Source of the DNA: Actinomycetes bacterium | GTDB taxonomy: Bacteria; Actinomycetota; Actinomycetes; Mycobacteriales; Micromonosporaceae | Length of the DNA stretch: 27,468 nt | Direction: 5' to 3' | NCBI GenBank assembly: GCA_023437285.1 | Contig: JAEZGP010000529.1 | Location: forward strand, 1 to 27,468 | Shown: piece by piece, positions 12,208 to 27,468 of the stretch | Layout: every line of letters starts with the position of its first letter | Position numbering within the stretch: the stretch's first letter is position 1 | The notes under the pieces: generated by a model | The model's input: only the letters and a program-made list of their open reading frames with translations | What the model was told of the DNA's origin: nothing | The model's database searches: none | Translations under genes and position numbers: made by a program

Positions 12208-12230
12208 GCCTCACGCGGCCGTCGTGAGGC
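12208..12230. terminator. Bidirectional terminator hairpin between rrf2 and cysA
   Basis: GCCTCACG (12208-12215), a 7-nt loop and CGTGAGGC (12223-12230) form a perfect 8-bp stem. It lies between the convergent Rrf2 and ABC ATPase genes and overlaps the ATPase stop codon. There is no T-run, as is common for actinobacterial hairpin terminators. Confidence 0.5.
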
Positions 12231-13188
12231 GGGTGGCCGCGGTACTGATGCCGGCGGGTACGCGCACGTGCACGGTGTCGCCCACGCCGACCCCCAGCGG
12301 CACGAACTGGGCCCGGGTCAGCGACACCTGGATCACCTGGTCGTCGGTGGTGACCTCCACCCGGATCTCGAACCCGACGCGGGTGACCCGGGTGATCCGG
12401 CCGGTCACCGACTCCGGCGACGGATCACCGGTGTGCAGCTCCAGGTCGTGGGGGCGGACGAGGCGGTCGCCGACCTGGGTGACCGGACCGAGGAAGCGCA
12501 TGACGAAGGTGTTGGCCGGCTCGTCGTAGAGCTGGTCGGGGGAGCCGACCTGCTCGATGCGGCCGTCGTTGATCACGACGATCTCGTCGGCGACCTCCAG
12601 GGCCTCCTCCTGGTCGTGGGTGACGAAGATCGTGGTCACGTGCACCTCGTCGTGCAGGCGGCGCAGCCAGTCGCGCAGTTCCTTGCGTACCTTCGCGTCG
12701 AGCGCGCCGAACGGCTCGTCCAGCAGCAGCACCGTGGGCTCCACGGCCAGGGCCCGGGCCAGGGCCATGCGCTGGCGCTGGCCGCCGGACAGCTGCGAGG
12801 GCAGCCGGTCGGCGAACTGCTCCAGGTGCACGAGGGCGAGCAGTTCGTTGACCCGGTCGCGGACCTCGGCCTTGGGCCGCTTGCGGATCTCCAGACCGAA
12901 GGCCACATTGCGGCGTACGGTCATGTGCTTGAACGCCGCGTAGTGCTGGAACACGAAGCCGACGTTGCGTTTCTGGGGCGACAGGTGGGTGGCGTCGATG
13001 CCCTCGATCTCCACCGTGCCGCTGTCGGCGCTCTCCAGCCCGGCGATGATGCGCAGCAGGGTGGATTTGCCGCCGCCGGAGGGACCGAGCAGCGCCGTGA
13101 GCCGGCCGGAGGGGATCGACAGGGACACGTCGTCCAGCGCGACGAAGCTGCCGAAGCGCTTCGTGACGTTCGCTATCTCGATGCTCAA
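12211..13188 (-). CDS. cysA: Sulfate/thiosulfate ABC transporter ATP-binding protein
   Basis: A 325-aa ATPase that powers sulfate/thiosulfate import through the two permeases encoded upstream. It begins (M)[12 protein letters not shown], closely like E. coli CysA. Walker A is GPSGGGKST (35-43), followed by the Q-loop [14 protein letters not shown], the ABC signature [15 protein letters not shown] (133-147), Walker [13 protein letters not shown] (153-164) and the H-loop His191 in [11 protein letters not shown]-terminal TOBE-like regulatory domain follows from about 240. The chosen start is TTG at 13188. It overlaps the permease stop as TTGA and has GGAAG upstream. Longer in-frame starts would run back through the permease gene in the wrong frame and read as Arg-rich nonsense. 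Confidence 0.94.
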
Positions 13189-13988
13189 CGCTCTTCCTTC
13201 GGGCGAATGACGGACACGACGATGACGCTGGCCACGGCCACCAGGGTGAGCAGGAACCCGATGGCGTAGGCGCTGTCGGTGTTGAAGTTCTGGTAGAGCT
13301 CCTCGACAGCCAGGGTGGCGGTGCGGGTCTCGCCGAGCACGTTGCCGGAGACGACCTTCACGGCGCCGAACTCGCCCAGCGAGCGGGCGAGGCTCAGCAC
13401 GACGCCGTAGACGACGCCCCACTTGATGGCGGGCAGCGTGATGCGGCGAAACGTCTGCAGCGCGTTGGCGCCCAGGCTCCGCGCGGCCTGCTCCTGTTCG
13501 TCGCCGACCTCTTCGAGGACCGGTACGACCTCGCGGATGACCAGCGGCAGGGCGACGAAAACGGTCGCCATGACGATGCCCGGAGTGGCGAAGATGATCT
13601 GCAGGCCGGCGTTTTCCAGCGTCGGGCCGAACCAGCCGTTGCGGCCGCCGTAGACCAGGACCAGGGAGAAGCCCACGACGATGGGCGACACGGACAGCGG
13701 CATGTCCAGCAGCGCGCTCAGCAGCCGCTTGCCGGGGAACCGGTAGCGCACCAGCAGCAGCGAGATGCCCACGCCGAACACGGTGTTGATGACGACGGAG
13801 ATCACCGCCACCTGGACCGTCAGGCCCAGCGCGTGGGTCAGGTCGGGGTCGTCGAAGATGTGGCGCAGGCTGTCCAGCCCGTCGGCGAACGCGTTCTTGG
13901 CCACCAGGGTCACCGGCCAGGCGACGAGCAGCACCAGGTACGCCGTGATGACCAGCCGCAGCGCGTACTTCATGGGGTTTCTAACCAC
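13185..13988 (-). CDS. cysW: Sulfate ABC transporter permease CysW
   Basis: A 267-aa inner-membrane permease, one half of the transmembrane channel. It has about six hydrophobic segments, the first at [20 protein letters not shown] and the last at [17 protein letters not shown]. The EAA loop that contacts the ATPase is [23 protein letters not shown]. The stretch [17 protein letters not shown] is characteristic of CysW. The start is taken at GTG 13988, which overlaps the preceding permease gene by 8 bp. An ATG five codons later (13973) gives MKYALRLV and is equally possible, since neither has a strong Shine-Dalgarno. The 3' end overlaps cysA, so translation is probably coupled. Confidence 0.93.
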
Positions 13989-14833: not shown

Positions 14834-15862
14834 CTACTGCGCCTTCCCGGAGGCGGCGATGATCTTCACGATGAGGCCCTCCTTCTCGTCGAAGTACTTC
14901 TTCGACAGGGCCGACCAGCTCTCGAAGTCGTTGGCGACGGTGAGCAGCTTGGCGGGCTTGGGGAAGGGGTTGGCGGCGTCCTGCGCGCCGGTGATGCCGG
15001 TCGTGTCGACGCCCTCGATGACGGGGCGGAAGCCCTTGAGCGCGAACTGCCGCTGGCCGTCCTTGCTGAGCACGAAGTCCAGCCACTCCTTGGCCTTCGG
15101 GTTGGCGTCCTTGAGGATGGCGCCCGGGTTCTCGATCAGCAGGGTCGTGTCCGGGTAGACCCACTCCAGTTCCTGGCCGTTCTGCACCGCCAGGATCGCC
15201 TCGTTCTCGTACGCCAGCAGGACGTCACCCGTACCGCCGAGGAAGCTCGTGGTGGCCTCCCGGCCGCTGCCCGGCAGGGCCACCACGTTCGCGAAGAGCT
15301 TCGTGAGGTACTCCCCGGCCTGCGCGTCGGTGCCGCCGTTGGCGGTGATGTGGCCCCACGCGGCGAGCGCGTTCCAGCGCGCGGCGCCGGACGAGGCCGG
15401 GTTGGGGGTCACGATGCCGATGCCCGGCTTGATCAGGTCGTCCCAGCCCTTGATGCCCTTGGGGTTGCCCTTGCGCACGGCCAGCACCACGACCGAGGAC
15501 GACACGATGCCCTTGGTCGGGCCGGCGTTCCAGCTGGCGTCGACCAGGCCCGCGTCGACCAGGCGGGTGACGTCGCTGCTCACCGAGAAGTGCACGTAGT
15601 CGGCCTTGAGGCCGCTGACGACCGCGCGGCTCTGGTCGCCCGAGGCGCCGTACGAGGTCTTGAACTTCACGCCCTTGCCGGCGGGGGTCTTGTTCCATTC
15701 GGCCGCGATGGCCTTGTTCGCGGCTTCGGGGACCGCGAAGCCGACGATGTTGAGGGTGACGTCCGAGCCCGAGGCGGGATCGTCGCCGCTGCCGCCGCAG
15801 GCCGACAGCGCCAGGCCGGCGGCGACGGTGAGCGCGACAAGGGCTCTGGTACGGATCTTCAT
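14834..15862 (-). CDS. Sulfate/thiosulfate-binding lipoprotein (Sbp/CysP family)
   Basis: A 342-aa extracytoplasmic solute-binding protein that captures sulfate or thiosulfate and delivers it to CysT-CysW. MKIRTRALVALTVAAGLALSAC is a lipoprotein signal peptide with lipobox LSAC and lipidated Cys22. The family anion-site motifs are SYGASGDQSRAVVSGLKADYVHFS and NPASSGAARWNALAAWG, equivalents of the HGGSG..ARAV and NPKTSG..R signatures. The ATG at 15862 is chosen because it opens the signal peptide and follows AGGGAGGA by about 12 nt. An ATG 17 codons upstream would add an Arg-rich extension that spoils the signal. It is the first gene of the four-gene transport operon. Sbp and CysP cannot be separated from sequence alone, so no symbol is given. 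Confidence 0.92.
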   Translation of the reverse strand: MKIRTRALVALTVAAGLALSACGGSGDDPASGSDVTLNIVGFAVPEAANKAIAAEWNKTPAGKGVKFKTSYGASGDQSRAVVSGLKADYVHFSVSSDVTRLVDAGLVDASWNAGPTKGIVSSSVVVLAVRKGNPKGIKGWDDLIKPGIGIVTPNPASSGAARWNALAAWGHITANGGTDAQAGEYLTKLFANVVALPGSGREATTSFLGGTGDVLLAYENEAILAVQNGQELEWVYPDTTLLIENPGAILKDANPKAKEWLDFVLSKDGQRQFALKGFRPVIEGVDTTGITGAQDAANPFPKPAKLLTVANDFESWSALSKKYFDEKEGLIVKIIAASGKAQ

Positions 15863-15884
15863 AAGGGGATCTGTCCTCCCTGAG

Positions 15885-15904
15885 GCGCGCGGGGGCGCGC
15901 GCCG
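15885..15904 (-). promoter_or_regulatory. GC hairpin just upstream of the binding-protein ribosome binding site
   Basis: GGCGCGC (15885-15891), a 6-nt loop and GCGCGCC (15898-15904) form a 7-bp all-GC stem. On the mRNA it ends a few bases before AGGGAGGA. It may act as an attenuator or modulate ribosome access to the first transporter gene. Confidence 0.35.
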
Positions 15905-16015
15905 AGATGTCATACACGTCGAGGGGTCGTGCGTCGGTGCGCTTCGCGGCGATGCGAGGGCGGCCGACCAGGAATCAGCGCGGTAGCTGCGTCGTGCCGG
16001 TGCGCGGGTCGCGGG

Positions 16016-16357: not shown

Positions 16358-17839
16358 TCAGCTACCTGTCCGATCGGGATTGCCTAAAACCTCGTCGGCC
16401 GCGTCGCGGATCGCCCGCCACGCCGCGGCGATGTCGGCCGCCGTCGTGGCCGGAGACCCCACCGCCAGCCGCAGCGCGAACCGCCCGCGCACCCGCGTGT
16501 GGCTCAACAACACCGCGCCGGTCCCGTTGAGCCGGTCGAGCAGCGCCGCGTTGGCGGCATCGCCGTCGTCGGCCCCACCGCCGCGCAACCGGAAAACCAC
16601 CAGGGCGTACGGGCTGGGAGCCACGATCTCGAACCGCGGATCGGTCCGGACCAGCTCGGCGAAGTCCCGCGCCAGGGCCACCTGCGAGCGGATGTGCGCG
16701 CGCAGCCCGTCGCGGCCGTACCAGCGCAGCACGAACCACAGCTTCAAAGCCCGGAACCGCCGGCCGAGCGGCACCTGCCAGTCCCGGTAGTCGATGACCG
16801 CGTCGTCGTCGGTGGCCGCGGTGCGCAGGTACTCCGGCAGGACCGACAACGCCTGGATGAGTTCGGCCCGGTCGGCCACCCAGAACGCGTCGCAGTCAAA
16901 CCCGGTGAGCAGCCACTTGTGCGGGTCGAAACAGTACGAGTCGGCGTACTCCAGGCCCGTGTGCCCGCCGCGCAGCTCCGGGCAGACCGCCGCCGCCCCC
17001 GCGTAGGCGGCGTCCACGTGCAGCCACAGCCCGTACTCCCGGGTGATCTCGCCGATCGCGGGCAGCGGGTCGACCGCGGTCGTGGAGGTGGTCCCGACCG
17101 TGGCGACCACGAGCGCGGGGACGGCGCCGTCGGCGAGGTCGGCCGCGATCCGCTCGCGCAGCCGGTCCGGGTTCATGGCCAGCGTGTCGTCGTCGACCTC
17201 GATCAGCCGCAGCCCGGCGTCGCCCAGGCCGGCCAGCCGGACCGCCTTCTCGATGGAGGAATGACCCTCGGTCGACGTGTACACCGTGTAGCGGCGGCGC
17301 GTGCCGTGCGCGCGCCAGTCGCCCCCGCTGGCGCGGTGCAACGCGGCGAACGTGGCGACCAGCGTGGCCGAGGACGCGGAGTCCTGGATCACTCCGCCGC
17401 CGGCGGCGTGCGAGCGGAACTTCCCCGGCAGGTCGAGCAGGTCGGCCAGCCAGTCGAGCATCACCGTCTCGACCTCGGTGCACGCCGGCCCGGTGGCCCA
17501 CAGCATGCCCTGTACGCCCAGGCCGGCGGCCACCAGGTCGCCCAGCACGCTGGGGCCGGACGTATTTGCGGGGAAGTATCCGAAGAACCGTGGGTGCTGC
17601 CAATGGGTCAGACCGGGGGCGATGATCGTGTCCAGGTCCTCGACGAGGGTGGCGAGCCCGTCCCCGGTGACCGGCGCGGCGGCGGGCAGCCTGGCCGCCA
17701 CCGCCCCGGGCGGGTCGGCCGAGCGCACCGGCCGCTCGGGCAGCGTCGCCCAGTAGTCGGCCACCCAGTCGACGAGCTGGTGTCCGTACTGGCGGAACTG
17801 CTCCGCCGACATGTGCGGCGGGACTTCTCGATCACCCAT
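16358..17839 (-). CDS. PLP-dependent group II (aromatic-L-amino-acid type) decarboxylase
   Basis: A 493-aa fold-type I PLP enzyme that decarboxylates an amino acid, probably aromatic, to its amine. Family landmarks are HWQHPRFFGYFPANTS near residue 80-95, TEGHSSIEKAV (the His that stacks on PLP), the PLP-nitrogen Asp in HVDAAYAGAA, and the Schiff-base Lys308 in FDPHKWLLTGFDCDAFWV. The length matches the aromatic amino acid decarboxylase/tyrosine decarboxylase group. The ATG at 17839 follows a TACAGT -10 by 6 nt and no Shine-Dalgarno is visible, so a leaderless transcript is likely. An internal ATG at 17812 is less likely. It stands alone between two other units. The true substrate (Trp, Tyr, Dopa, Phe or 2,4-diaminobutyrate relatives) cannot be assigned. 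Confidence 0.92.
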   Translation of the reverse strand: MGDREVPPHMSAEQFRQYGHQLVDWVADYWATLPERPVRSADPPGAVAARLPAAAPVTGDGLATLVEDLDTIIAPGLTHWQHPRFFGYFPANTSGPSVLGDLVAAGLGVQGMLWATGPACTEVETVMLDWLADLLDLPGKFRSHAAGGGVIQDSASSATLVATFAALHRASGGDWRAHGTRRRYTVYTSTEGHSSIEKAVRLAGLGDAGLRLIEVDDDTLAMNPDRLRERIAADLADGAVPALVVATVGTTSTTAVDPLPAIGEITREYGLWLHVDAAYAGAAAVCPELRGGHTGLEYADSYCFDPHKWLLTGFDCDAFWVADRAELIQALSVLPEYLRTAATDDDAVIDYRDWQVPLGRRFRALKLWFVLRWYGRDGLRAHIRSQVALARDFAELVRTDPRFEIVAPSPYALVVFRLRGGGADDGDAANAALLDRLNGTGAVLLSHTRVRGRFALRLAVGSPATTAADIAAAWRAIRDAADEVLGNPDRTGS

Positions 17840-18159: not shown

Positions 18160-19044
18160 ATGAGCGACCTGTCGACGGTCGGTCCGACAACCGGTGTCAG
18201 CCGGTCGGTCGCGGCGGTGTTGCATAACGGACAAACCGCGCCAAGCCAAGTAGCATCGGGGTCTGTGATCGGGCCGGGCTGCAACGGGGACTACCGATGG
18301 GACGAGTTCAACACGTACTCGTATCTCGGCGACAACTATTGCGCGCTGCGCGACGACGACCGCCAGATCATCTCGCTGGTCCGGGACTTCTTCGCCGCCA
18401 ACGCGCACCACGCTCCGCGCCAGCCGGACGGCACGCGCACGGGCCTCGACATCGGCACCGGCCCGAATCTCTACCCCGCCATGACCATGTTGCCGTTCTG
18501 CGACTCGATCGTGCTGGGCGAGTGGTCGCTGGCCAACCTGGAGTGGCTGCGCAAGGAGAAGGAGGAGTACGGGCACAACTGGGACCCGTTCTGGGCGGAA
18601 CTGGCCCGTAGCGAGCCCTACCGGTCGGTGGACGATCCCCGCAACGCGCTGCGTCGGGCGGCCCGGGTCGAGCACGCCAGCGTCTTCGACCTGCCGGTCG
18701 CGCGCTATGACATGGGCACCATGTTCTTCGTGGCCGAGTCATGCACCGGCGAGCCCGACGAATTCGACCGGGCGGTACGCCAATTCGCGCGCTCGCTGCG
18801 CCCCGGCGCGCTATTTGCGGCCGCGTTCATGACCGGATCGGCCGGTTACGAGGTGGGCGACCAGCATTTTCCCGCGGTAAAGGTGAATACGAACATCATT
18901 CGACGAAGTCTTCGCCGGTTCGTATCTCGTGGATGGTTGCCGTATGCCGCTAAGCTGAAAGTCTGTCCGATCACGACTGAGATGCCGCTGCGCCACGGTT
19001 ACGACGGCATGGTCGTCGCGTTCGGCCGGATCCGGTCGCGATAA
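18160..19044 (+). CDS. SAM-dependent methyltransferase, SCO2525-like (NNMT/PNMT/TEMT fold)
   Basis: A 294-aa class I methyltransferase related to the NNMT/PNMT/TEMT family of small-molecule N-methyltransferases. The motif I equivalent is GLDIGTGPNLYPAMTMLPF, followed by the acidic strand end in IVLGEWSLANLEWLRKE. The N-terminal WDEFNTYSYLGDNYCALRDDDRQIISLV is the family's substrate-lid region, and MGTMFFVAESCTGEPDEF is the motif IV region. It is the first gene of a four-gene unit matching, from memory, the SCO2525-to-SCO2522 order. The ATG at 18160 has TGGAG six bases upstream. The first ~35 residues are atypical, and GTG 18265 behind TAGCAT is an alternative leaderless start. The acceptor is unknown. 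Confidence 0.82.
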   Translation: MSDLSTVGPTTGVSRSVAAVLHNGQTAPSQVASGSVIGPGCNGDYRWDEFNTYSYLGDNYCALRDDDRQIISLVRDFFAANAHHAPRQPDGTRTGLDIGTGPNLYPAMTMLPFCDSIVLGEWSLANLEWLRKEKEEYGHNWDPFWAELARSEPYRSVDDPRNALRRAARVEHASVFDLPVARYDMGTMFFVAESCTGEPDEFDRAVRQFARSLRPGALFAAAFMTGSAGYEVGDQHFPAVKVNTNIIRRSLRRFVSRGWLPYAAKLKVCPITTEMPLRHGYDGMVVAFGRIRSR

Positions 19045-19068
19045 CGGCGTGAGTTTGGCGGTTTACAG

Positions 19069-20901
19069 ATGAAAATGGAGCCGCGCCAGCAGTTGCTGGA
19101 GGTCTGGGAAGCCACCGTTCGCATGTCGTGGCGCGACGGCGTCTGGCACTGGGGCGGCAGGGACGGCCGCAACTCCATCGCGGACGCCGAGCAGCTGCTG
19201 TGCCTTCTCATGCCGGCCACCCAGCTCGGCGAAATCTTCGGCATCGACCGGCCGGACGCCACGAACGACGAGATCCTCGAGGTGCTCGAGCGGCTGGGCA
19301 ACCAGTCGGAGGTCCCCAGACGACTGGCATCGGCTCTCATCGATTACTTCCAGACCTACCGCGAGGATGGCCGGCCGGTGTTCTCGGGCGGCACCTACTT
19401 CGGTAGCCGGGAGGGTCGCGAGGCCATCACCAAGCAGCAGTCCGACCTCGACATCGTCGACTCGTACGCTATGTCGATCACGCTGTCGCTGGCGTCCATC
19501 GGTTTCGCGCGCGTGTTCCAGAACGCGGTCACCCGCGACGCGCTGCGCGACGAGATCCGGCGGTTGGGCGAGCTGGCCAGCGAGCGCCTGAGCGCCGCCA
19601 TGGTGGGCCTGCTGCGCAGCTTCACCATTTCTGTGCTGGACATGGACGACCCGGAAGGCCGGATTCTCGTCGAGACGATCAACAAGTCCAACGAGCCGCG
19701 CCGCGTCGTCGTCAACCGGCTGCGCGAGCGCCTGCGTCAGACCGTGGCCGCGTTCCGTGAGGTGACCATCGGTTCCGGTCAGCTGCCCGACCTCGACGTG
19801 CTCAACAGCAACACCCGGCTGTTCCAGTGTGGTTGGTCGTGGGGCGTCGTCGTGAACGCCCCACAGGTGGAAACCACCGAGAAGGTCGGCGAGCAGCCCG
19901 AGGGCGTCGCGTTCGACTCGCCGTTCCTCTACTTCACCGTCGTCACGATGGACGCCATCGAGGACCTGTGGTCGGAACGCACCCGCATTCTGGGCCTGCT
20001 CAACGACGAACAGCAGCGACTCGCCCGTGCCCTGCAGTTGCGTTACGACCTCACCCGCCAGTACTGGGCGACGGTCGCGGCGTTCGGCGAGCGGTGGCCG
20101 CTTGAGGACATTCCCTGGCGCACCACCGACGGCGAGGAGTCCGACTACTTCACTCTCCTGGTCACCTCGCTCGCGGTGAAGGGCTTCGTCACCGAGCGCG
20201 GCTCGGACGTCGAGCTGGCCCGGGTCGGCAACCTGCTCAGCGAGCTGGCCAACCGGGGGCGCATCACGCGCCGGCCGCTCGGCCACGACCCTGCCGCCGA
20301 CCTGCACGCGCCGGGCCAAGAGTTCGGCCTCGACGGCAGCGACATCGACGGCGGCCCGGAGCTGACCTGGTCGGCCACCGAGTTCGCCCCGCTGCTCCTA
20401 CAGCGCACCGCGACGATCGCCAGTCTGCTCAACACCGCCGTGGCCCGCAATACGCTGCTGGAGTTGGCCGACGGCGTGTGGAACCACCTGGAGATCCGCC
20501 GGCTCGACGTCGGCCCCGGTCGCGGCCTGTGGGACCAGCCCTCCCAGGCGTTCCCCACCATGGAGCTGCGCTACGACGTGCCGTCGTGGTACTACACGGA
20601 ACGCGTCGTGCACGGCCTCGTTCTGGTCGCCCGTACGCTCAACCGCGTACCGCTGCGCAGTGAGCGGCTCACCCAGATCGCCAACGACCTGCTCTACGAG
20701 GCCGAGCACCTGCTCGATCAGGTGCTGCTCAACACGCCGGCGTCGGGCCGGTCGGGCCTGCGCGCGGTGCGCATCAAGCTCGACCGGGCCCGCCAGATCG
20801 TCGACAACCGGCCGGGCACCTCCGCCGTGCTCGCCAATGAGGTGCTCCGGCAGCTGGAGACCCTCGCCGCGGCGGTGCGGGAAGTGTCCGGGGGGAACTG
20901 A
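19069..20901 (+). CDS. SCO2524-like protein of unknown function
   Basis: A 610-aa soluble protein without signal peptide, membrane segment or recognisable catalytic motif. By size, neighbours and remembered sequence character it matches the actinobacterial family called SCO2524. It appears largely alpha-helical. An N-terminal ~110-residue segment (QLLEVWEATVRMSWRDG...AEQLLCLLMP) is followed by a helical middle around ASIGFARVFQNAVTRDALRDEIRRL. A conserved-looking centre includes SPFLYFTVVTMDAIEDLW, and the C-terminal helical part begins near SWYYTERVVHGLVLVARTLNR. The start is ATG 19069 or 19075, with only a weak GGCGG upstream, 24 bp after the methyltransferase stop. The variant P-loop gene begins one base after its stop, which strongly suggests the two products act together. 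I cannot give a biochemical role. Confidence 0.75.
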   Translation: MKMEPRQQLLEVWEATVRMSWRDGVWHWGGRDGRNSIADAEQLLCLLMPATQLGEIFGIDRPDATNDEILEVLERLGNQSEVPRRLASALIDYFQTYREDGRPVFSGGTYFGSREGREAITKQQSDLDIVDSYAMSITLSLASIGFARVFQNAVTRDALRDEIRRLGELASERLSAAMVGLLRSFTISVLDMDDPEGRILVETINKSNEPRRVVVNRLRERLRQTVAAFREVTIGSGQLPDLDVLNSNTRLFQCGWSWGVVVNAPQVETTEKVGEQPEGVAFDSPFLYFTVVTMDAIEDLWSERTRILGLLNDEQQRLARALQLRYDLTRQYWATVAAFGERWPLEDIPWRTTDGEESDYFTLLVTSLAVKGFVTERGSDVELARVGNLLSELANRGRITRRPLGHDPAADLHAPGQEFGLDGSDIDGGPELTWSATEFAPLLLQRTATIASLLNTAVARNTLLELADGVWNHLEIRRLDVGPGRGLWDQPSQAFPTMELRYDVPSWYYTERVVHGLVLVARTLNRVPLRSERLTQIANDLLYEAEHLLDQVLLNTPASGRSGLRAVRIKLDRARQIVDNRPGTSAVLANEVLRQLETLAAAVREVSGGN

Positions 20902-20902
20902 C

Positions 20903-21820
20903 ATGCTGGTGTTCGCGACGTCCGACAAGGGCGGCACCGGTCGTTCCGTGACGAGTTCCAACATCATGTACCGCCGGGCCCTGCACGGCAGCGACGTCTG
21001 CTACCTCGACTTCGACTTCGGCTCGCCCACCGCCGGGTCGATCTTCGATATCGACAACGCGCTGCGCGGTACGCCGGACAGCGACGGCCTGCACTCCTAC
21101 CTGCAGGGCGTGCGTTCCGAGCCGCGCAAGATCGAGGTGTGGAAGGAGTCCGACCGCCACTCGCTGCGCCGTCGGCCCGCCCTCGCCGGCCGGCTTGTGC
21201 TGCTCCCGGGCGACCTGGGCGGCGCGGAGTTCGCCGCCACCGCCGAGATCGTCGATCGGTGCGCGCGACTGTTCCGCGACCTCGAGGAGGAGTTCGACCT
21301 CACGCTGGTCGACCTCAGCGCCGGCCGCTCGTACGCGACCGAGATCGTACTCGCGGCCACCGCCCGTCCCGAGTTCACCGGGCGTTTCCGGTGGATCGTC
21401 TACCACCGGTGGACCCGCCAGCACGTGCTCGCCGCGGCCAACCTGATCTACGGGCACAAGGGGATCCTGGAGACCGCCCGCGACTGCGGCCACGACCCGG
21501 TGGAGCTCAAGGCGGTCCTGCGGACGGTGCGCACCGCCGTGGTCGACCCCGAGCGCGACGACCTGGGCGGGCTGAGCGAGGCGCAGGTCGCCTGGCTGCG
21601 GGCCAGCAACCGGGGCCTGCGGGAACTGGCGACCACCGAGCGGGTGGGCCGCACGATGCTGCTCGGGTCCGTGCCGCTGGACCCCGTGCTCCAGTGGCGC
21701 GAGCAGTTGATCTCCGACAACGACGTGCTGGACCGGGGCATCGCCAATGAAGCCACGGTCAAGGCCTTCGAATCGTTGGGCAAGCGTCTGGTGACGGACG
21801 AGGCCTGGGAGACGTTGTGA
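20903..21820 (+). CDS. SCO2523-like variant P-loop (MinD/ParA-type) protein
   Basis: A 305-aa protein with the SIMIBI/ParA-MinD layout. The N-terminus MLVFATSDKGGTGRSVTSSN is a deviant Walker A. The signature Lys9 is kept, but the phosphate-binding lysine of KGGTGKS/T is Arg14. The switch-like strand YLDFDFGSPTAGSIFDI holds Asp36 and Asp38, and the Walker B position is LTLVDLSAGRS with Asp137. ParA/MinD proteins are nucleotide-driven dimers that position or regulate partners. The substitution may mean nucleotide binding with little or no hydrolysis. The ATG at 20903 follows GGGGGGAAC and lies 1 nt after the upstream stop. The 3' end overlaps the next gene as GTGA. NCBI-style naming for this family is, as I recall, SCO2523 family variant P-loop protein. 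Confidence 0.82.
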   Translation: MLVFATSDKGGTGRSVTSSNIMYRRALHGSDVCYLDFDFGSPTAGSIFDIDNALRGTPDSDGLHSYLQGVRSEPRKIEVWKESDRHSLRRRPALAGRLVLLPGDLGGAEFAATAEIVDRCARLFRDLEEEFDLTLVDLSAGRSYATEIVLAATARPEFTGRFRWIVYHRWTRQHVLAAANLIYGHKGILETARDCGHDPVELKAVLRTVRTAVVDPERDDLGGLSEAQVAWLRASNRGLRELATTERVGRTMLLGSVPLDPVLQWREQLISDNDVLDRGIANEATVKAFESLGKRLVTDEAWETL

Positions 21821-22800
21821 CCGTGGTTGACGCGATTGGTCCCACCTTCCGCGAGGAGCAGGCGGAGCGGAAGGTGGAATCGGTGCCGCTGTCGCACCTG
21901 TCGGTCGAGTTGGGTCACCTCTACATGGAGGACTTCAACGAGGGCTACGACGCCCTGCGCCGGCATTTCGCGAGAGTGGCGCCCTGGGTGACGGTGGCGA
22001 CCGCGTCCGGCGCCGGGCAGGTGCCCGGCCGCAAGGCGCGGGTCAGCACGTGTTTTCTCATCGATGACTACTTCACCCGGTTCAGCAGCCCGCTGACGGT
22101 CGTGCGGAACCTGGAGCGGGCCGCCGCCGAAAACAAGATCACCATTGACTACATCGCCCGGGAGTCGGCCTGCGCGACGCTCGACGGGGTCGACGTCGCC
22201 CGCCTGGTCGCCGACCGTCTCGTGGTCGAGCCGACCCCGGAGACCACCGGCGTACGCCCGCCGGTCACCGAGAGCGGCTGGCTGTCCAACGGCCAGCGCT
22301 CACCCGTGTCGGGCGCCGCACCGGCGATGGCCGGCCTGTTGCAGTGGAAGCCGCCGGTGGAGACGGCCGCCAACCGGCACTCCATCTTCATGGACGTCCA
22401 GCTCTGGGACGACGACGGCGGCCGTCGGACGTGGTCGTGCCCGTTCCTGGCCGCCGTGTGGCAGTTGCTGCGGTTGGGCCTGCTGCGCCACCGCGGCGAG
22501 GGCCTCGTGCGGCCGGTACCCATGGCCGTGTGGCTCGCGAGCGAGGTGACCGACGACTGGGACCGGATGCCGCCCGTACTCCAGCTCAATGCGCGCGCGG
22601 CGCCGTTCGGGGCGTACCGGACGATGTCCGTACTCGCCTCGCGGTACCTGCCGGTGGAGCACGCGGTGCGGACCATCCTCAACCATGTGGCCGTCGAGGC
22701 GGCGGTCCTGGAGCAGGTGGAGGAGCGCAGCCAGGCCGAGGGCATGAAGCTGCCCGCGGAGCTCGTGGAGCGCATCAGCTACTACTTCGCCGGCGGCTGA
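21817..22800 (+). CDS. SCO2522-like protein of unknown function
   Basis: A 327-aa soluble protein with no assigned function. Distinct segments are SVPLSHLSVELGHLYMEDF near the N-terminus, STCFLIDDYFTRFSSPLTVV around residue 70-90, and ITIDYIARESACATLDGVDVA. The rest contains WSCPFLAAVWQLLRLGLLRH and a helical C-terminus. The acidic IDDYF and the ARESAC stretch look conserved and functional, but I do not recognise an active site. The GTG at 21817 overlaps the P-loop gene's stop (GTGA), and a second GTG two codons on is possible. Coupled translation with the variant P-loop protein suggests a complex or shared pathway. The family name rests on order and remembered similarity. Confidence 0.75.
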   Translation: MTVVDAIGPTFREEQAERKVESVPLSHLSVELGHLYMEDFNEGYDALRRHFARVAPWVTVATASGAGQVPGRKARVSTCFLIDDYFTRFSSPLTVVRNLERAAAENKITIDYIARESACATLDGVDVARLVADRLVVEPTPETTGVRPPVTESGWLSNGQRSPVSGAAPAMAGLLQWKPPVETAANRHSIFMDVQLWDDDGGRRTWSCPFLAAVWQLLRLGLLRHRGEGLVRPVPMAVWLASEVTDDWDRMPPVLQLNARAAPFGAYRTMSVLASRYLPVEHAVRTILNHVAVEAAVLEQVEERSQAEGMKLPAELVERISYYFAGG

Positions 22801-22807
22801 GCCGCCG
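22791..22807. terminator. Hairpin whose loop is a stop codon, between convergent genes
   Basis: CGGCGGC (22791-22797), TGA (22798-22800) and GCCGCCG (22801-22807) form a perfect 7-bp GC stem with the SCO2522-like stop codon as the loop. The converging gene's stop begins at 22808. It probably acts as a bidirectional terminator. Confidence 0.5.
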
Positions 22808-23743
22808 TCACCGCCCTGCGCGGTCGCTCAGGACGGCGCTCAGCGCTACCTGGTCGCGGATGCGGCTCACCGATGTCTCCCATTGGCGGGTGAAGCCGGG
22901 CCGCCGCTCCAGCGCGTCCCAGACGGGCAGCAGCGGCTCCGCGACCCGGGCCGCCGGCATCCACAGGTGCAGCAGGTGGTCGATCGCGGGGCGTAGCTGG
23001 GCGACGCGCTCGGCGGGGCTGACCTGCGCGGTGATCCGGCGGTCCACATAGGAGACCATGGTGGTGAGCAGCCAGTCGTGCAGGGCCAGGTCCTCACAGA
23101 GGTCCACCACCGCGGGCAGCGACGGCACGGGTACGCGCAGCACGAGCGTACGCATGGTGTCCGACTCGACGGAGAACGCGGTGCTGACGGTGGCGGTCGC
23201 ATCCTCCTCGGGCGTCGGGGAGACGAGCCAGCGCAGCCGCGTGCGTTGGGTGCGCAGCGGCGCGCGCCGGTCGAGCAGCCGGGAGCGTTGCGCGTCGTCC
23301 ATCGCCCGGCCCGCGATGGCGCCGAGGTCGAGGCTGCGCTCACTGTCGGTGGCGCGGACCTGACCGTTGCGCAGGTCGGTCAGGTCGACCTTGCCGATCG
23401 TCTCCAGGCGGCCGGGCCGGGCCAGGTAGTAGGACCAGGCCAGCCGGCGTGGCTCGCGACCGGGCGTCACCATGGCGAACGCCGAGCCCTGCAGCACATG
23501 TCCGCCGGTGATCGCGGCGCGGCTCGCGACGGTGCCCACGGCCCGCGTACGGCTGCCGGTTGCGGTGGGCAGCCGGCAGTCCACGCCCGTGAGCCGGTCG
23601 GGTGAGACGGCATAGGCGATGGGCCGCTCGGAGCGGCGCACGCGTTCGCCGAGAACGACATCGAGGATGGCTGTCGCGTCGTCCTGGGAAATGGCGGTGG
23701 AGTTCTGGAGCAGTCCGGTATGGACCTCGCCGAGGATGAGCAT
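22808..23743 (-). CDS. SCO2521-like protein of unknown function
   Basis: A 311-aa soluble protein of the family called SCO2521, partner of the four-gene unit but on the opposite strand and converging with it. It begins MLILGEVHTGLLQNSTAIS. The N-terminal half includes GVDCRLPTATGSRTRAVGTVASRAAITGG and AWSYYLARPGRLETIGKVDLTDL, likely beta-rich. The C-terminal half is helical (LCEDLALHDWLLTTMVSYVDRRI, then IDHLLHLWMPAARVAEPLLPVWDALE). No catalytic or nucleotide-binding motif was recognised. The ATG at 23743 is chosen because GGAGG lies five bases upstream. An ATG six codons earlier would place this Shine-Dalgarno inside the gene. Opposite-strand placement means it is separately regulated from its presumed partners. 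Confidence 0.74.
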   Translation of the reverse strand: MLILGEVHTGLLQNSTAISQDDATAILDVVLGERVRRSERPIAYAVSPDRLTGVDCRLPTATGSRTRAVGTVASRAAITGGHVLQGSAFAMVTPGREPRRLAWSYYLARPGRLETIGKVDLTDLRNGQVRATDSERSLDLGAIAGRAMDDAQRSRLLDRRAPLRTQRTRLRWLVSPTPEEDATATVSTAFSVESDTMRTLVLRVPVPSLPAVVDLCEDLALHDWLLTTMVSYVDRRITAQVSPAERVAQLRPAIDHLLHLWMPAARVAEPLLPVWDALERRPGFTRQWETSVSRIRDQVALSAVLSDRAGR

Positions 23744-23880
23744 GGCACCTCCGTGCTCCATACTGACGGCCCGCTGTCATGGCACCAAATTGAGGCATCG
23801 GGGCAGGCCGCGCCCGGTGTCATCGTTTCACGTGTTGGGGGCCTTGGCCCGCTTCCGGGTCCGGCACCGGCGACGATTAT

Positions 23881-23932: not shown

Positions 23933-24910
23933 GTGACCCCTCCTCGCGTCGATGTCCTCGTGGTGGGCGCCGGCGTGGTCGGCCTGACCACGGCGGTGCG
24001 GCTCGCCGAGGCTGGGCGGTCGGTGCTCGTCCGGGCCCGCGAGCTGCCGAGCGAGACCACGTCGTTCGCGGCCGGCGCCATGTGGTGGCCGCTGTGGGCC
24101 GCCCATGAGCGGGTCCCCGAGTGGAGCGAGCAGACCCTGCGCGCGATGCGTGAGATGGCCGACGACCCGCGCGCCGGCATCCAGTGGGTGAGCGGCCTGG
24201 AGGCGGCCCGGTTCCCGGCCGAGCCGCCGGAGCTCGTCACGCGCGTCGACGGCTTCGTCCGCTGCGATGCGGCGGAGCTGCCCGACGGCTTCGTCTCCGG
24301 GTGGCGCTACACGGTGCCCGTGGTGAACATGCCGCGGTACCTGGCCTACCTGCAGCAGCGCCTGGTGGCCGCCGGGGGGCGCATCGAGCTGGGCGAGGTG
24401 GGCTCACTGGCCGACCCGAGCATCAACGCGGACGTCGTCATCAACTGCACCGGCATCGGCGCTCGTACGCTCGTGCCCGACGGGGGTCTGGTGCCGGTCC
24501 GTGGTCAGCTCGTCGTGGTGCGCAACCCGGGCATCGACCAGTTCTTCGCGGAGTACGGCGAGTCGACGGCGGACGGCGGGTCGACGCCCGAACTGACGTA
24601 CATCCTGCCGCAGGGCGACCACGTGATCCTGGGTGGCACGGCCGAGAAGGGCCGCTCGGACAGCGCGGCCGACCCCGACCTGGCGGCGGCGATCGTGCGG
24701 CGGTGTGCCGCGATCGAGCCGACGCTGCTCGACGCGCTGGTCATCGGTCACCGCATCGGGCTGCGTCCCGACCGGGGACAGGTTCGCCTGGAGCTTGTCG
24801 ACGTGGGCGACCGCAAGGTCATCCACAACTACGGGCACGGCGGCGGGGGAGTGACGTTGTCGTGGGGGTGCGCGAGCGACATCGTCGCGATGGTTCTGGG
24901 CCTCGACTAG
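23933..24910 (+). CDS. D-amino-acid oxidase family FAD flavoenzyme
   Basis: A 325-aa DAO-family flavoprotein, which oxidises D-amino acids to 2-oxo acids, NH3 and H2O2. The N-terminal FAD dinucleotide motif is DVLVVGAGVVGLTTAVRLAEAG. The second FAD segment is VINCTGIGARTL and the substrate-side segment is LVPVRGQLVVV. The C-terminal DAO signature is HNYGHGGGGVTLSWGCASD, containing the conserved H-N-Y-G and Gly-rich turn. The length (about 325-350 in the family) is complete. The GTG start at 23933 is supported by a -10 element 6 nt upstream (leaderless). It sits between the unknown SCO2521-like gene, which is divergent, and the NACHT protein gene (same strand, about 60 bp away). A link to these neighbours is not established. 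Confidence 0.92.
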   Translation: MTPPRVDVLVVGAGVVGLTTAVRLAEAGRSVLVRARELPSETTSFAAGAMWWPLWAAHERVPEWSEQTLRAMREMADDPRAGIQWVSGLEAARFPAEPPELVTRVDGFVRCDAAELPDGFVSGWRYTVPVVNMPRYLAYLQQRLVAAGGRIELGEVGSLADPSINADVVINCTGIGARTLVPDGGLVPVRGQLVVVRNPGIDQFFAEYGESTADGGSTPELTYILPQGDHVILGGTAEKGRSDSAADPDLAAAIVRRCAAIEPTLLDALVIGHRIGLRPDRGQVRLELVDVGDRKVIHNYGHGGGGVTLSWGCASDIVAMVLGLD

Positions 24911-24968
24911 CGGTGCGACAGTGGCCATTATGGACACACGGCAGGTCGGCCGAGCGCGGGAGAAGGTA

Positions 24969-27468
24969 TTGACGAAGGTCTACATCTCGGCGACATTTCT
25001 CGACCTGCAGAGTTGCCGCCTGGCCGCACAGAAGGTGCTGCGGCAGTTGCATTACGAGGACGTCGCCATGGAAACCTACGTGGCCGACGACCGCCGACCG
25101 GTCGACCGGTGCCTGCGCGACGTCGCGGCCTGCGACCTCTACATCGGCATCTTCGCCTTCCGGTACGGGTACGTGCCGCGTGGCGCGACCATGTCGATCA
25201 CCGAGATGGAGTACCGGGAAGCGCAGCGCCTGCGCAAGCCGTGCCTGATCTTCCTGCTGGACGAGGACGCGCCGTGGCCGATCCGCTGGGTCGACCGGGG
25301 TGAGAACCTCGAGCGGATCCTGGCCCTGCGCCAGCACCTGGCGGAGGAGCACGTGTGCGACTTCTTCACCGGCCCGGACTCGCTAGCCCACCAGGTCAGC
25401 GTCGCCCTGACCAACTGGCAGAACGACACCGGCACCGCCGCGCCCGGCCGTGAGGCGCTCAGCCAGGACAGCCTCAACCGTTACCTGGCCCGACTGCGCG
25501 CGCACTGCGCCGGCGTCGACGTGGAACTGCTGCGTCCGGCCGTACACCCCGACGTGCGCCAGGCCAACCTCGCGGAGGTGTTCGTCGAGCCGACCGTCCG
25601 GGAGAACCAGCCGCGAGTGGAGATCCCCCGGGAGTGGCGCCGCCGCCTGCCCGAGGCCGGCGACGCGGCGTGGGTGCCGGCTGACGTCGGCGACGTGCAG
25701 CGGCTGTGGCAGGCCCTGCACGCCGGCCCCGAGCGGCGGCTGTTCGACGTGCTCACCGAGCGCGGTCAGCGCACGATGGTGCTGCTCGGCGACCCCGGCA
25801 GCGGCAAGTCCACGATCGCCCGCTATCTCATGGGCGCGCTGGCCGGCACCACCACCGACCGGCGGCTGAGCGCCCTCACCGAGCATCTGCCGGTCCTGGT
25901 GGAGTTGCGCTCGTACGTGGCGAAGATGCGGGCCGGGCGGTGCCAGAGCTTCCTGGACTACCTCGACATCGAGGCCGACGGCAACGGCCCCGGACTGGCC
26001 CGGGAGGTGCTGGAGCCGTACCTGCGCGCCGGGCACAAGGCGCTCGTCGTCTTCGACGGGCTCGACGAGGTGCCCCGCCAGGACCTGCTGCGGGCCGAGA
26101 TCGCCCGCCAGATCGCCGGCTTCGCCGCGGAGTACCCGCAGGTGCGGGTGATCGTCACGAGCCGGGGGGTCGGCTACGCGGCCACGTCATTGGGCGACTT
26201 CGCCCACTTCACCCTTCAGGACCTCGACGGGGCCCAGATCGGCGACTTCCTGCGCCGCTGGTCGGCGGAGGTGCGGCGCACGCCGGAGGTGGGCCAGGTG
26301 AACCGCATGGTCGCCGCGCTGAGCGACTCCGCCACGATGCGCGAGCTGTCCGGCAACCCGCTGCTGCTGACGATCCTCGCGCTCGACGGTGACGGCCAAC
26401 CGCCACGCGGCCGCTGGCAACTGTGCCAGCACGCGGTGTCCGTTCTCGTGCGGCGGTGGGACGGCATCCCCCGCCCCAACGACGACCCGCTGGCGTTCCT
26501 GACCGCGACCGACCATCTGCGCTTGCTGCGCAACCTGGCCTTCCGCGCGGTGACCGGCCAGCTGTCCGTGGCCGACAACGTGATCAGCCAGGAAGACCTG
26601 TGCGGCGCGTTCGAGGAGTACCTGAGCCCCAAGTTCATCCAGGAGCCCGATCGCGCCCGACTGCTGGCCAGCCTGCTGGTCGACGAGTTCCGCGAGCGGC
26701 ACTTCATCCTCAGCCGCTTCGGCGACGAGCACGTCGGGTTCGTGCATCGCACGTTCCTGGAGTTCTTCGTCGCGGACGCCATCGTGCACTGGCACGCCGA
26801 GGGCACGTTCACCGCGACCGACCTCGCCGACCTCTACCGCAGCCACTGCGCCGACGCCGCCTGGCACGAGATCCTGCGACTCATCGCCGCCCACCCCGAC
26901 GTGGACGTGGGCCCGCTGCTGACGGTGCTGACCAGCCGGTCCGAGCGCCCGTGGCCGGCGGCGGAGTTCGACGAGCCGCCCACCCACATCGCCCTCGCGG
27001 TGCAGTGCCTCGCCGAGGTCGCGGACCCCGACACGGTGGCCGAGCCCGCCGCCGCTCTGCTGCACCAGGTGATCCTGTTGCTGGAGCACGGCGTCACCCT
27101 CGACGACCGGGCCACCGACCTGATGGTCGAGACCGAGCTGCTGCCCGCCGCCGCGCTCATTGGCACGCGGTGGCCAGGCCGCAAGGAATACCTGCGCTGG
27201 TACCGCCGGCGCGGTTCGGCCATCGTGTCGGCCCCCATGTCGTCACACGCCGCCCGGCTGGCCGCGATGCTCGCCGACGAGTACGACGGGGTGGTAAACC
27301 TGCTCGACCAGCTCGGCCGGCCGCGGGCGCCGCTCGCTGCCGCCCTGGCCTCCGTGGCGGGCATCGAGGAGCTGGCGCGGACCGCCCTGCGCGACGTCGG
27401 CGTCGGCGGCGAGGCGACCGCCGACGAGCCGGGCGGGGGCGCGACACCGCCCAGGACCGGCGCCCAGC
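24969..27468 (+). CDS. DUF4062-NACHT STAND NTPase, 3'-truncated by window edge
   Basis: The frame is open to the window end (over 830 residues). Residues 1-~100 form a DUF4062 domain: MTKVYISATFLDLQ, then CDLYIGIFAFRYGYVP and SITEMEYREAQRLRKP (76-91), a Rossmann-like module often fused to NACHT ATPases. A linker leads to the NACHT domain with Walker A GDPGSGKST (Lys280), Walker B VVFDGLDE (Asp363, Asp366, Glu367), the sensor-like VTSRG, and GNPLLLTILAL. FVHRTFLEFFVADA near 591 is the winged-helix ending typical of such proteins. A helical, possibly repeat-bearing C-terminus continues out of view. The TTG at 24969 follows GGGAGAAGG and gives the family N-terminus. ATG 24930 is the alternative. 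Such STAND proteins act as ligand-triggered switches in signalling or anti-phage conflict. The role here is inferred. Confidence 0.88.
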   Translation, partial: MTKVYISATFLDLQSCRLAAQKVLRQLHYEDVAMETYVADDRRPVDRCLRDVAACDLYIGIFAFRYGYVPRGATMSITEMEYREAQRLRKPCLIFLLDEDAPWPIRWVDRGENLERILALRQHLAEEHVCDFFTGPDSLAHQVSVALTNWQNDTGTAAPGREALSQDSLNRYLARLRAHCAGVDVELLRPAVHPDVRQANLAEVFVEPTVRENQPRVEIPREWRRRLPEAGDAAWVPADVGDVQRLWQALHAGPERRLFDVLTERGQRTMVLLGDPGSGKSTIARYLMGALAGTTTDRRLSALTEHLPVLVELRSYVAKMRAGRCQSFLDYLDIEADGNGPGLAREVLEPYLRAGHKALVVFDGLDEVPRQDLLRAEIARQIAGFAAEYPQVRVIVTSRGVGYAATSLGDFAHFTLQDLDGAQIGDFLRRWSAEVRRTPEVGQVNRMVAALSDSATMRELSGNPLLLTILALDGDGQPPRGRWQLCQHAVSVLVRRWDGIPRPNDDPLAFLTATDHLRLLRNLAFRAVTGQLSVADNVISQEDLCGAFEEYLSPKFIQEPDRARLLASLLVDEFRERHFILSRFGDEHVGFVHRTFLEFFVADAIVHWHAEGTFTATDLADLYRSHCADAAWHEILRLIAAHPDVDVGPLLTVLTSRSERPWPAAEFDEPPTHIALAVQCLAEVADPDTVAEPAAALLHQVILLLEHGVTLDDRATDLMVETELLPAAALIGTRWPGRKEYLRWYRRRGSAIVSAPMSSHAARLAAMLADEYDGVVNLLDQLGRPRAPLAAALASVAGIEELARTALRDVGVGGEATADEPGGGATPPRTGAQ

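What the first reader, a model, noticed from the sequence alone, without database searches (positions are those of the whole stretch)
18160..23743. Five-gene SCO2521-SCO2525-like system of unknown function
A methyltransferase, a 610-aa unknown protein, a MinD/ParA-like variant P-loop protein and a second unknown protein are tightly packed (gaps 24 bp, 1 bp, then a 4-bp overlap), with a fifth member converging. The tight packing implies stoichiometric expression of products that act together. The families carry names from S. coelicolor, but I know of no function. One model is a P-loop switch that organises the two unknown proteins, with the methyltransferase modifying a small molecule or partner.
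Basis: partly seen in the sequence, partly recalled or inferred. Interest (0 to 1): 0.72.

Follow-up and report, generated by a model that had tools for sequence, protein, structure and literature searches.

The report
Actinomycete gene core with swappable partners
Four soil-actinomycete genes that are nearly always found together, often with a methyltransferase, look like a small enzyme complex tied to one of several different membrane or immune-type proteins, which gives a testable idea of what this unexplained gene set does.

The parts
18160..19044 (+). SCO2525-family SAM methyltransferase (NNMT/PNMT/TEMT superfamily); optional member
   Evidence: NCBIfam NF040568 294.7 bits; PF01234 56.2 bits over cut-off; nearest solved relatives nicotinamide N-methyltransferases, E 4.7e-6. 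The model match starts at residue 42, so the true start may lie downstream.
19069..20901 (+). SCO2524-family protein, core; predicted (alpha/alpha)6 toroid
20903..21820 (+). SCO2523-family MinD/ParA-like protein, core
   Evidence: NF040564 471.6 bits; weak AAA_KGGVGR 38.2 bits, below its cut-off of 90.
20927..20947 (+). Variant P-loop KGGTGRS: signature Lys kept, Walker A Lys replaced by Arg
   Evidence: KGGTGRS in 79 and KGGTGRT in 2 of 81 loci.
21817..22800 (+). SCO2522-family protein, core; predicted class I aminoacyl-tRNA-synthetase-like (HUP) fold
21895..21918 (+). HIGH-like motif HLSVELGH at the end of strand 1
   Evidence: H.S.E.GH in 79 of 80 SCO2522 genes; the 80th keeps SIELGH. Strand 26-35 in the model.
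22808..23761 (-). SCO2521-family protein, core; fold unknown
23933..24910 (+). D-amino-acid-oxidase-type flavoprotein, divergent from SCO2521; accessory
   Evidence: PF01266 145.2 bits; D-aspartate/D-amino-acid oxidases, best E 6.3e-43; within 6 kb of the core in 20 of 27 Micromonosporaceae loci.
24921..27468 (+). DUF4062-NACHT-HEAT (STAND/NLR-like) partner, cut by the window end
   Evidence: PF13271 76.6 bits and PF05729 40.4 bits over cut-offs in the window part; HEAT repeats in full-length relatives.
24975..25223 (+). DUF4062 (TIR-like) domain with conserved Glu in SITEMEY
   Evidence: Pfam residues 19-101; SITxxEY in 9 of 9 relatives over 1300 aa and in the window.

Best explanation
The locus is a modular actinomycete system. 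SHOWN: a four-gene core (SCO2524-2523-2522-2521) that is present or absent as a unit; an optional SAM methyltransferase; and a neighbouring partner that differs between loci (2-TM/PLD-like, DUF4062-NACHT-HEAT, or channel-like). INFERRED: SCO2522 (aminoacyl-tRNA-synthetase-like fold) and SCO2524 (toroid fold) act on an amino-acid or amine compound, as a complex gated by the nucleotide state of the slow or non-hydrolysing SCO2523 P-loop protein. The methyltransferase, D-amino-acid oxidase or GNAT protein, all of families that act on amino groups, tailor or neutralise that compound. The partner reads the output: the 2-TM or channel-like protein would change membrane permeability, the DUF4062-NACHT protein would hydrolyse NAD+. 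I think the physiological role is self-limiting stress or conflict control in filamentous actinomycetes. Confidence by step: one unit 0.95; partner genes belong to it 0.8; core is enzymatic 0.6; partners are effectors 0.45; conflict role 0.35. The figure below is for the whole chain down to effectors.
For: Same 10 of 121 genomes for all four core families over cut-off. The 2-TM family is strong (E below 1e-80) in 6 of those 10 and in 0 of the other 111. Among neighbour clusters, after the core the widest by named family are the 2-TM protein (5), SCO2525 (5) and the GNAT (4); the next reach 3. Counting hits over 150 bits, no locus has two partner types: 60, 12, 4 and 5 without one, of 81. A NACHT-FGE protein sits in one of the five (L020). 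Away from the core, the 2-TM gene still sits with SCO2525 and the oxidase in 6 loci (L085, L095-L099). Folds. DUF4062 is reported as an NADase family acting in antiphage defence (preprint PMC13174449: abstract, sections 5, 8, 11, passages). Inactive MinD/ParA-like domains, some fused to an AP-ATPase in actinobacteria, occur in conflict systems (passages of PMC7159879). The methyltransferase is reported as necessary for normal growth.
Against: PADLOC gave only weak matches for ten proteins, best E 3.7e-5 (oxidase to a desaturase model) and 0.0048 (SCO2523 to PDC-M28B). SCO2524 has no match in plasmid or phage records and none confirmed in viral contigs. Shared gene order in Streptomyces and Streptosporangiaceae suits a housekeeping role. 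Partner exchange is only two or three events on the tree. In 5 of 12 DUF4062-type genomes the 2-TM gene survives elsewhere, so it was not simply replaced. Four core-less genomes have weak 2-TM-family matches, E 6e-12 to 9e-5. Profile comparison gives no sequence support for the aaRS link: 0.17% for ArgRS, no better than unrelated controls. No KMSKS motif was identified. SCO2521 is unexplained. Two of 10 system genomes have no recognised partner (L082, L083). One genome (G174) also has 2522 and 2521 without 2524/2523 on the fetched stretch (L087).
Confidence: 0.4

Rival explanations
1. A small-molecule pathway without any conflict role: SCO2522 joins an amino acid to an amine or sugar (as MshC does for mycothiol, recalled), SCO2524 isomerises or binds the sugar part, SCO2525/GNAT/oxidase tailor it, and the product is a growth or developmental factor; the membrane partner transports or senses it.
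For: Epimerase-like toroid and aaRS-like fold; an amine-type enzyme in cis in 73 of 81 loci; growth and morphogenetic role of SCO2525 in passages; shared chromosomal synteny.
Against: A NACHT-DUF4062-HEAT protein, a NACHT-FGE protein and a channel-like protein as alternative neighbours are unusual for a biosynthetic pathway. I did not annotate every neighbour cluster, so a transporter or carrier is not excluded.
Confidence: 0.3
2. One reading: SCO2523 is a MinD/ParA-type spatial or assembly switch that organises SCO2524 and SCO2522 (and SCO2521), the methyltransferase modifying a partner.
For: Invariant deviant P-loop with the signature Lys and acidic residues kept; strict co-occurrence; close or overlapping genes.
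Against: The replaced Walker A Lys argues against the usual ATP-hydrolysis cycle of ParA/MinD; the presumed scaffolded proteins have enzyme-like predicted folds.
Confidence: 0.15
3. The methyltransferase is a nicotinamide N-methyltransferase that removes the nicotinamide released by the DUF4062 NADase partner, so the five genes plus 24921 form an NAD-depleting unit.
For: Nearest solved relatives are NNMTs; DUF4062 releases nicotinamide (abstract of PMC13174449); both genes flank the core in this window.
Against: SCO2525 accompanies the 2-TM partner far more often than DUF4062, and 8 of 12 DUF4062 loci lack it in cis. Similarity to NNMT is weak (E 4.7e-6).
Confidence: 0.06

Closest known systems
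NCBIfam SCO2521-SCO2525 families (NF040564-NF040568)
   Same: All five proteins are over the curated cut-offs.
   Different: The model names give no function and cover only these five; the 2-TM/PLD-like, DUF4062-NACHT-HEAT, channel-like, GNAT and oxidase partners are outside them.
Swarozyc (DUF4062 antiphage NADase)
   Same: The partner at 24921 carries DUF4062 with a conserved Glu.
   Different: Here DUF4062 is fused to NACHT-HEAT (DUF4062 beside NACHT is described for human TEP1 and NWD1) and sits beside the SCO252x core; NADase activity is not shown.
NTP-dependent conflict systems of multicellular prokaryotes (eLife 2020, PMC7159879, passages)
   Same: Predicted inactive MinD/ParA-like domains, in actinobacteria also fused to an AP-ATPase; FGS domains there are mostly cyanobacterial, here one NACHT-FGE neighbour.
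   Different: None of the five window proteins matches a MoxR or vWA family in Pfam; here the MinD-like protein is a stand-alone core gene with enzyme-like neighbours.
CBASS/Thoeris-type signalling with interchangeable effectors (recalled)
   Same: An enzyme-like core with alternative membrane or NADase-type partners.
   Different: None of the five window proteins matches a nucleotidyltransferase or TIR family in Pfam or PADLOC; the core folds are different.
MshC, mycothiol cysteine ligase (stand-alone class I aaRS-like ligase)
   Same: Stand-alone class I synthetase-like protein in actinobacteria; a GNAT in both pathways (recalled for mycothiol).
   Different: No sequence relation: hhalign 0.19%.

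Membership tests
SCO2521-SCO2525 NCBIfam equivalogs | Score over the curated cut-off | tested here: met
   All five over cut-off.
MinD/ParA P-loop NTPases | Deviant Walker A KGGxGK[ST] | tested here: not met
   KGGTGR[ST] in 81 of 81: signature Lys present, Walker A Lys is Arg.
MinD/ParA P-loop NTPases | Fold and remaining motifs | tested here: inconclusive
   N-terminal profile matches to iron-sulfur carrier (Mrp-type) chains, E 1.3e-5, and a site-determining protein, E 0.0031; D36, D38, D137 invariant in 38 of 38 aligned; not folded.
Class I aminoacyl-tRNA synthetases (SCO2522) | Catalytic HUP fold | tested here: met
Class I aminoacyl-tRNA synthetases (SCO2522) | HIGH and KMSKS motifs | tested here: inconclusive
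   E-[LVI]-GH in place of HIGH at the end of strand 1; no KMSKS identified by eye.
Class I aminoacyl-tRNA synthetases (SCO2522) | Sequence-profile similarity | tested here: not met
   hhalign 0.17% to ArgRS, 0.19% to MshC; the ArgRS-MshC control itself only 40.8%. So not filed as an aaRS.
AGE/2-epimerase-type (alpha/alpha)6 toroids (SCO2524) | Toroid fold | tested here: met
AGE/2-epimerase-type (alpha/alpha)6 toroids (SCO2524) | Catalytic residues and activity | not tested
   Model coordinates were not among the session files.
NNMT/PNMT/TEMT methyltransferases (SCO2525) | Pfam PF01234 over gathering score | tested here: met
   56.2 bits against 25.
DUF4062 NADases / Swarozyc | DUF4062 domain and conserved Glu | tested here: met
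   76.6 bits; SITxxEY in 9 of 9 and the window; equating this Glu with E97 of KpSwz is my inference.
DUF4062 NADases / Swarozyc | NAD+ hydrolysis on phage trigger | not testable with these tools
   Needs biochemistry.
Phospholipase D (2-TM partner) | HKD catalytic motif | tested here: not met
   No HxK...D pattern in 60 of 63; some sources name relatives PLD-like.
Known antiphage systems (PADLOC) | Profile match | tested here: not met
   Ten proteins scanned; best matches E 3.7e-5 and 0.0048, partial and not convincing.

The most novel reading that the evidence does not exclude
The core is a new kind of signal generator: a synthetase-like protein (SCO2522) and a toroid enzyme (SCO2524), gated by a non-cycling MinD-like protein, make an amino-acid-derived messenger. 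This messenger opens 2-TM/PLD-like or channel-like proteins or triggers a DUF4062-NACHT-HEAT NADase, while the methyltransferase, oxidase or acetyltransferase acting on the amino group switches it off. That would be an aminoacyl-type messenger system with interchangeable killers.
Probability: 0.15. Interest if true: 0.92.

Novelty: new variant of a known kind. Interest (0 to 1): 0.62.

Why it matters
The SCO2521-SCO2525 families are named but unexplained, and one of them is reported as necessary for normal growth of the model S. coelicolor. Fold predictions for two of the unknowns, a strict co-occurrence test and alternative membrane and NACHT partners turn an unexplained operon into specific experiments: what does the SCO2522/SCO2524 pair make, and does it act through the partner? 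If the partners are effectors, this adds a signalling core unlike those I know of to the immune-like repertoire of multicellular bacteria.

Tried and rejected
Upstream PLP decarboxylase (16358-17839) as a member: rejected, no relative among the flanking ORFs of the 80 loci in the all-against-all comparison. MTase as a strict member: rejected. 'The DUF4062 protein replaced the 2-TM gene' as a general rule: weakened, since 5 of 12 such genomes keep the 2-TM gene elsewhere. c6 oxidase of Streptosporangiaceae as a member: left open, because it sits in a stretch of shared gene order in that family. SLATT/DUF4231 identity for the 2-TM part: only E about 0.1, not claimed. Ion-channel identity of the third partner: weak, E 0.03-0.05 in 2 of 5 members scanned with Pfam and no match in 3; it rests on two hydrophobic segments in 4 of 4. 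Sequence-level proof that SCO2522 is an aaRS: failed. No PDB sequence relatives for SCO2521 and SCO2522 at E up to 1; SCO2524 gave three weak rows, E 0.03-0.64; the 2-TM family gave one, E 0.25. Searches for the system in print: SCO2521-2525 (three papers), KGGVGR, SLATT, DUF4231, DUF6879 and 2TM effector (mostly unrelated), FxSxx and others, DUF6879, DUF4062, SCO2520, SCO2526, Gehring and methyltransferase, a mixed query; no listing or passage that I saw describes the system's mechanism.

Rows dropped: alignments are subsets after length and 85% identity filters. A1 uses all 56 kept rows (from 80 passing length), A2 47 of 53 (from 78), A3 55 of 60 (from 79), A4 38 of 48 (from 77), A5 44 of 46 (from 63). 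The genome scan kept 80 of 238 confirmed loci. Protein searches list 120 of 2289, 1332 and 183 matches. In the search one of 19 genomes (L068) was not held.
Full report
OBSERVATION. Of the five, only the methyltransferase is over a Pfam cut-off in the Pfam copy scanned; a newer Pfam family, PF28097, is precomputed for the SCO2522 relatives listed. The P-loop protein also has a weak, below-cut-off match to the KGGVGR-motif variant AAA domain (38.2 bits).

CO-OCCURRENCE. A scan of the genome collection with SCO2524 confirmed 238 relatives, of which 80 loci were kept. With the window that is 81 loci. SCO2524 and SCO2523 are in 81, SCO2522 and SCO2521 in 80 (L009 lacks both), SCO2525 in 39 within the flanks. 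The 24-23 gap is at most 50 bp in 80 of 81 and the 23-22 gap in 80 of 80 (a few are large negative values from uncertain starts). These loci were chosen by SCO2524. In 121 genomes of one order (including the centre genome, chosen because it has the system), the four core families occur over cut-off in the same 10 genomes and in none of the other 111; for SCO2523 nine further genomes have weak matches below cut-off. SCO2525 is over cut-off in 6 of the 10, with one weaker relative in a genome lacking the core. In 149 genomes across the phylum, centre included, 4 carry SCO2524.

PARTNERS. Clustering flanking ORFs and ranking clusters within 6 kb of the core by the number of named families puts, right after the four core genes, a 2-TM protein (5 families), SCO2525 (5) and a GNAT acetyltransferase (4); the next reach 3. 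The 2-TM family, about 310 aa, has a C-terminal DUF6879-like domain (over cut-off in 2 of 3 scanned); some sources call relatives phospholipase-D-like, but an HKD pattern is missing in 60 of 63. By a simple hydropathy threshold 43 of 63 have two membrane segments, 19 one and 1 none. Counting profile hits over 150 bits, 60 of 81 loci have this protein, 12 a DUF4062-NACHT-HEAT protein, 4 a protein with two C-terminal hydrophobic segments and at best a weak Ion_trans_2 match, and 5 none (L009, L014, L020, L047, L079); no locus has two types. L020 has a 917-aa NACHT-FGE-sulfatase protein convergent with SCO2521. The window is of the DUF4062-NACHT type: the gene starts at 24921, 10 bp after the oxidase, and is cut by the window end.

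HOW OFTEN PARTNERS CHANGED. On a FastTree of joined SCO2524+SCO2523 (81 rows, midpoint root), the DUF4062 loci form one clade (support 0.98, containing the partnerless L009 and L014) with a 2-TM locus as sister; the channel-like loci form one clade (1.0); L020 is nested among 2-TM loci (0.99). So there were two or three changes, not many. The change is not always a replacement: of 12 DUF4062-type genomes searched (11 behind loci, plus G193), 5 keep the 2-TM gene elsewhere. In those, and in the genome of L014, it sits beside SCO2525 and the oxidase (L085, L095-L099), which links the three accessory genes to each other away from the core. In the genome of L079 the 2-TM gene lies apart, with neither of them in the 4 kb seen (L094). 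In four genomes with the channel-like partner no 2-TM gene was found (G280, G281, G283, G052); nor in those of L020 and L047. Of the 10 system genomes in the order sample, 8 have a recognised partner; the two behind L082 and L083 have none. Strong 2-TM matches are confined to core-bearing genomes (6 of 10; 0 of 111); four core-less genomes have weak ones.

CHEMICAL THEME. SCO2525 is nearest to nicotinamide N-methyltransferases, the window's oxidase to D-amino-acid and D-aspartate oxidases, and c12 is a GNAT. All belong to families that commonly act on amino groups (established knowledge). At least one of SCO2525, oxidase or GNAT lies near the core in 73 of 81 loci; this count includes the Streptosporangiaceae oxidase c6, which may be mere synteny. 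Of the other eight loci (L001-L005, L009, L020, L034), the genomes of L001, L003 and L005 carry the satellite module. With a synthetase-like core protein this suggests an amine or amino-acid compound as the common substrate. This is inference.

LITERATURE. Passages (not whole texts) state that sco2521-sco2526 is an operon under HupS control and that SCO2525 is necessary for normal growth (PMC11472566), that it is HrdB-controlled with a morphogenetic role (PMC6344877), and that its mutagenesis has been discussed with SAM effects (PMC3017869). The primary paper, Gehring et al. 2004, was not held. DUF4062 as a TIR-like NADase in antiphage defence is from a 2026 preprint, PMC13174449 (abstract, sections 5, 8, 11 and passages). 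Inactive MinD/ParA-like domains in conflict systems, and FGS domains (there mostly cyanobacterial), are from passages of PMC7159879.

JUDGEMENT. Unity of the core: strong. Partner genes belonging to it: good. Enzymatic core: moderate, fold-based. Effector and conflict role: tentative; PADLOC and plasmid, phage and viral searches with SCO2524 give no support, and shared synteny suits a physiological role equally well. A growth defect on loss of the methyltransferase fits an intrinsically harmful core activity that the methyltransferase restrains, and equally fits a simple metabolic need; the double-deletion test separates them.

Noticed in passing
window 2032-6669 (+): Large subunit of glutamate synthase: GATase_2, central, synthase and GXGXG domains all strong. 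Ordinary housekeeping gene.
   Followed up: no
window 12211-13422 (-) and 14834-15913 (-): ABC ATPase with TOBE domains and a solute-binding protein, probably one transporter; unrelated to the finding.
   Followed up: no
L085:7573-10840 and L095-L099: Satellite module of the 2-TM/PLD-like gene, SCO2525 and the D-amino-acid-oxidase gene, away from the core, in genomes whose core carries DUF4062-NACHT-HEAT (or no partner, L098).
   Followed up: partly
L086, L087 (G174) and L088, L089 (G191): Genomes with more than one core copy, some in tandem, with several SCO2525 copies and some incomplete sets, such as 2522 and 2521 without 2524/2523 on L087.
   Followed up: no
L020:14630-17380 (-): NACHT protein with a C-terminal FGE-sulfatase domain right after SCO2521 in Planotetraspora thailandica, in place of the 2-TM gene.
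   Followed up: partly
L009 (Actinoplanes solisilvae): Reduced locus with only SCO2524 and SCO2523, although the same genome has a full locus (L022).
   Followed up: no
SCO2522 family, P0001-P0120: A newer Pfam family, PF28097, which gave no hit in the Pfam copy scanned here, is precomputed for the SCO2522 relatives listed.
   Followed up: no
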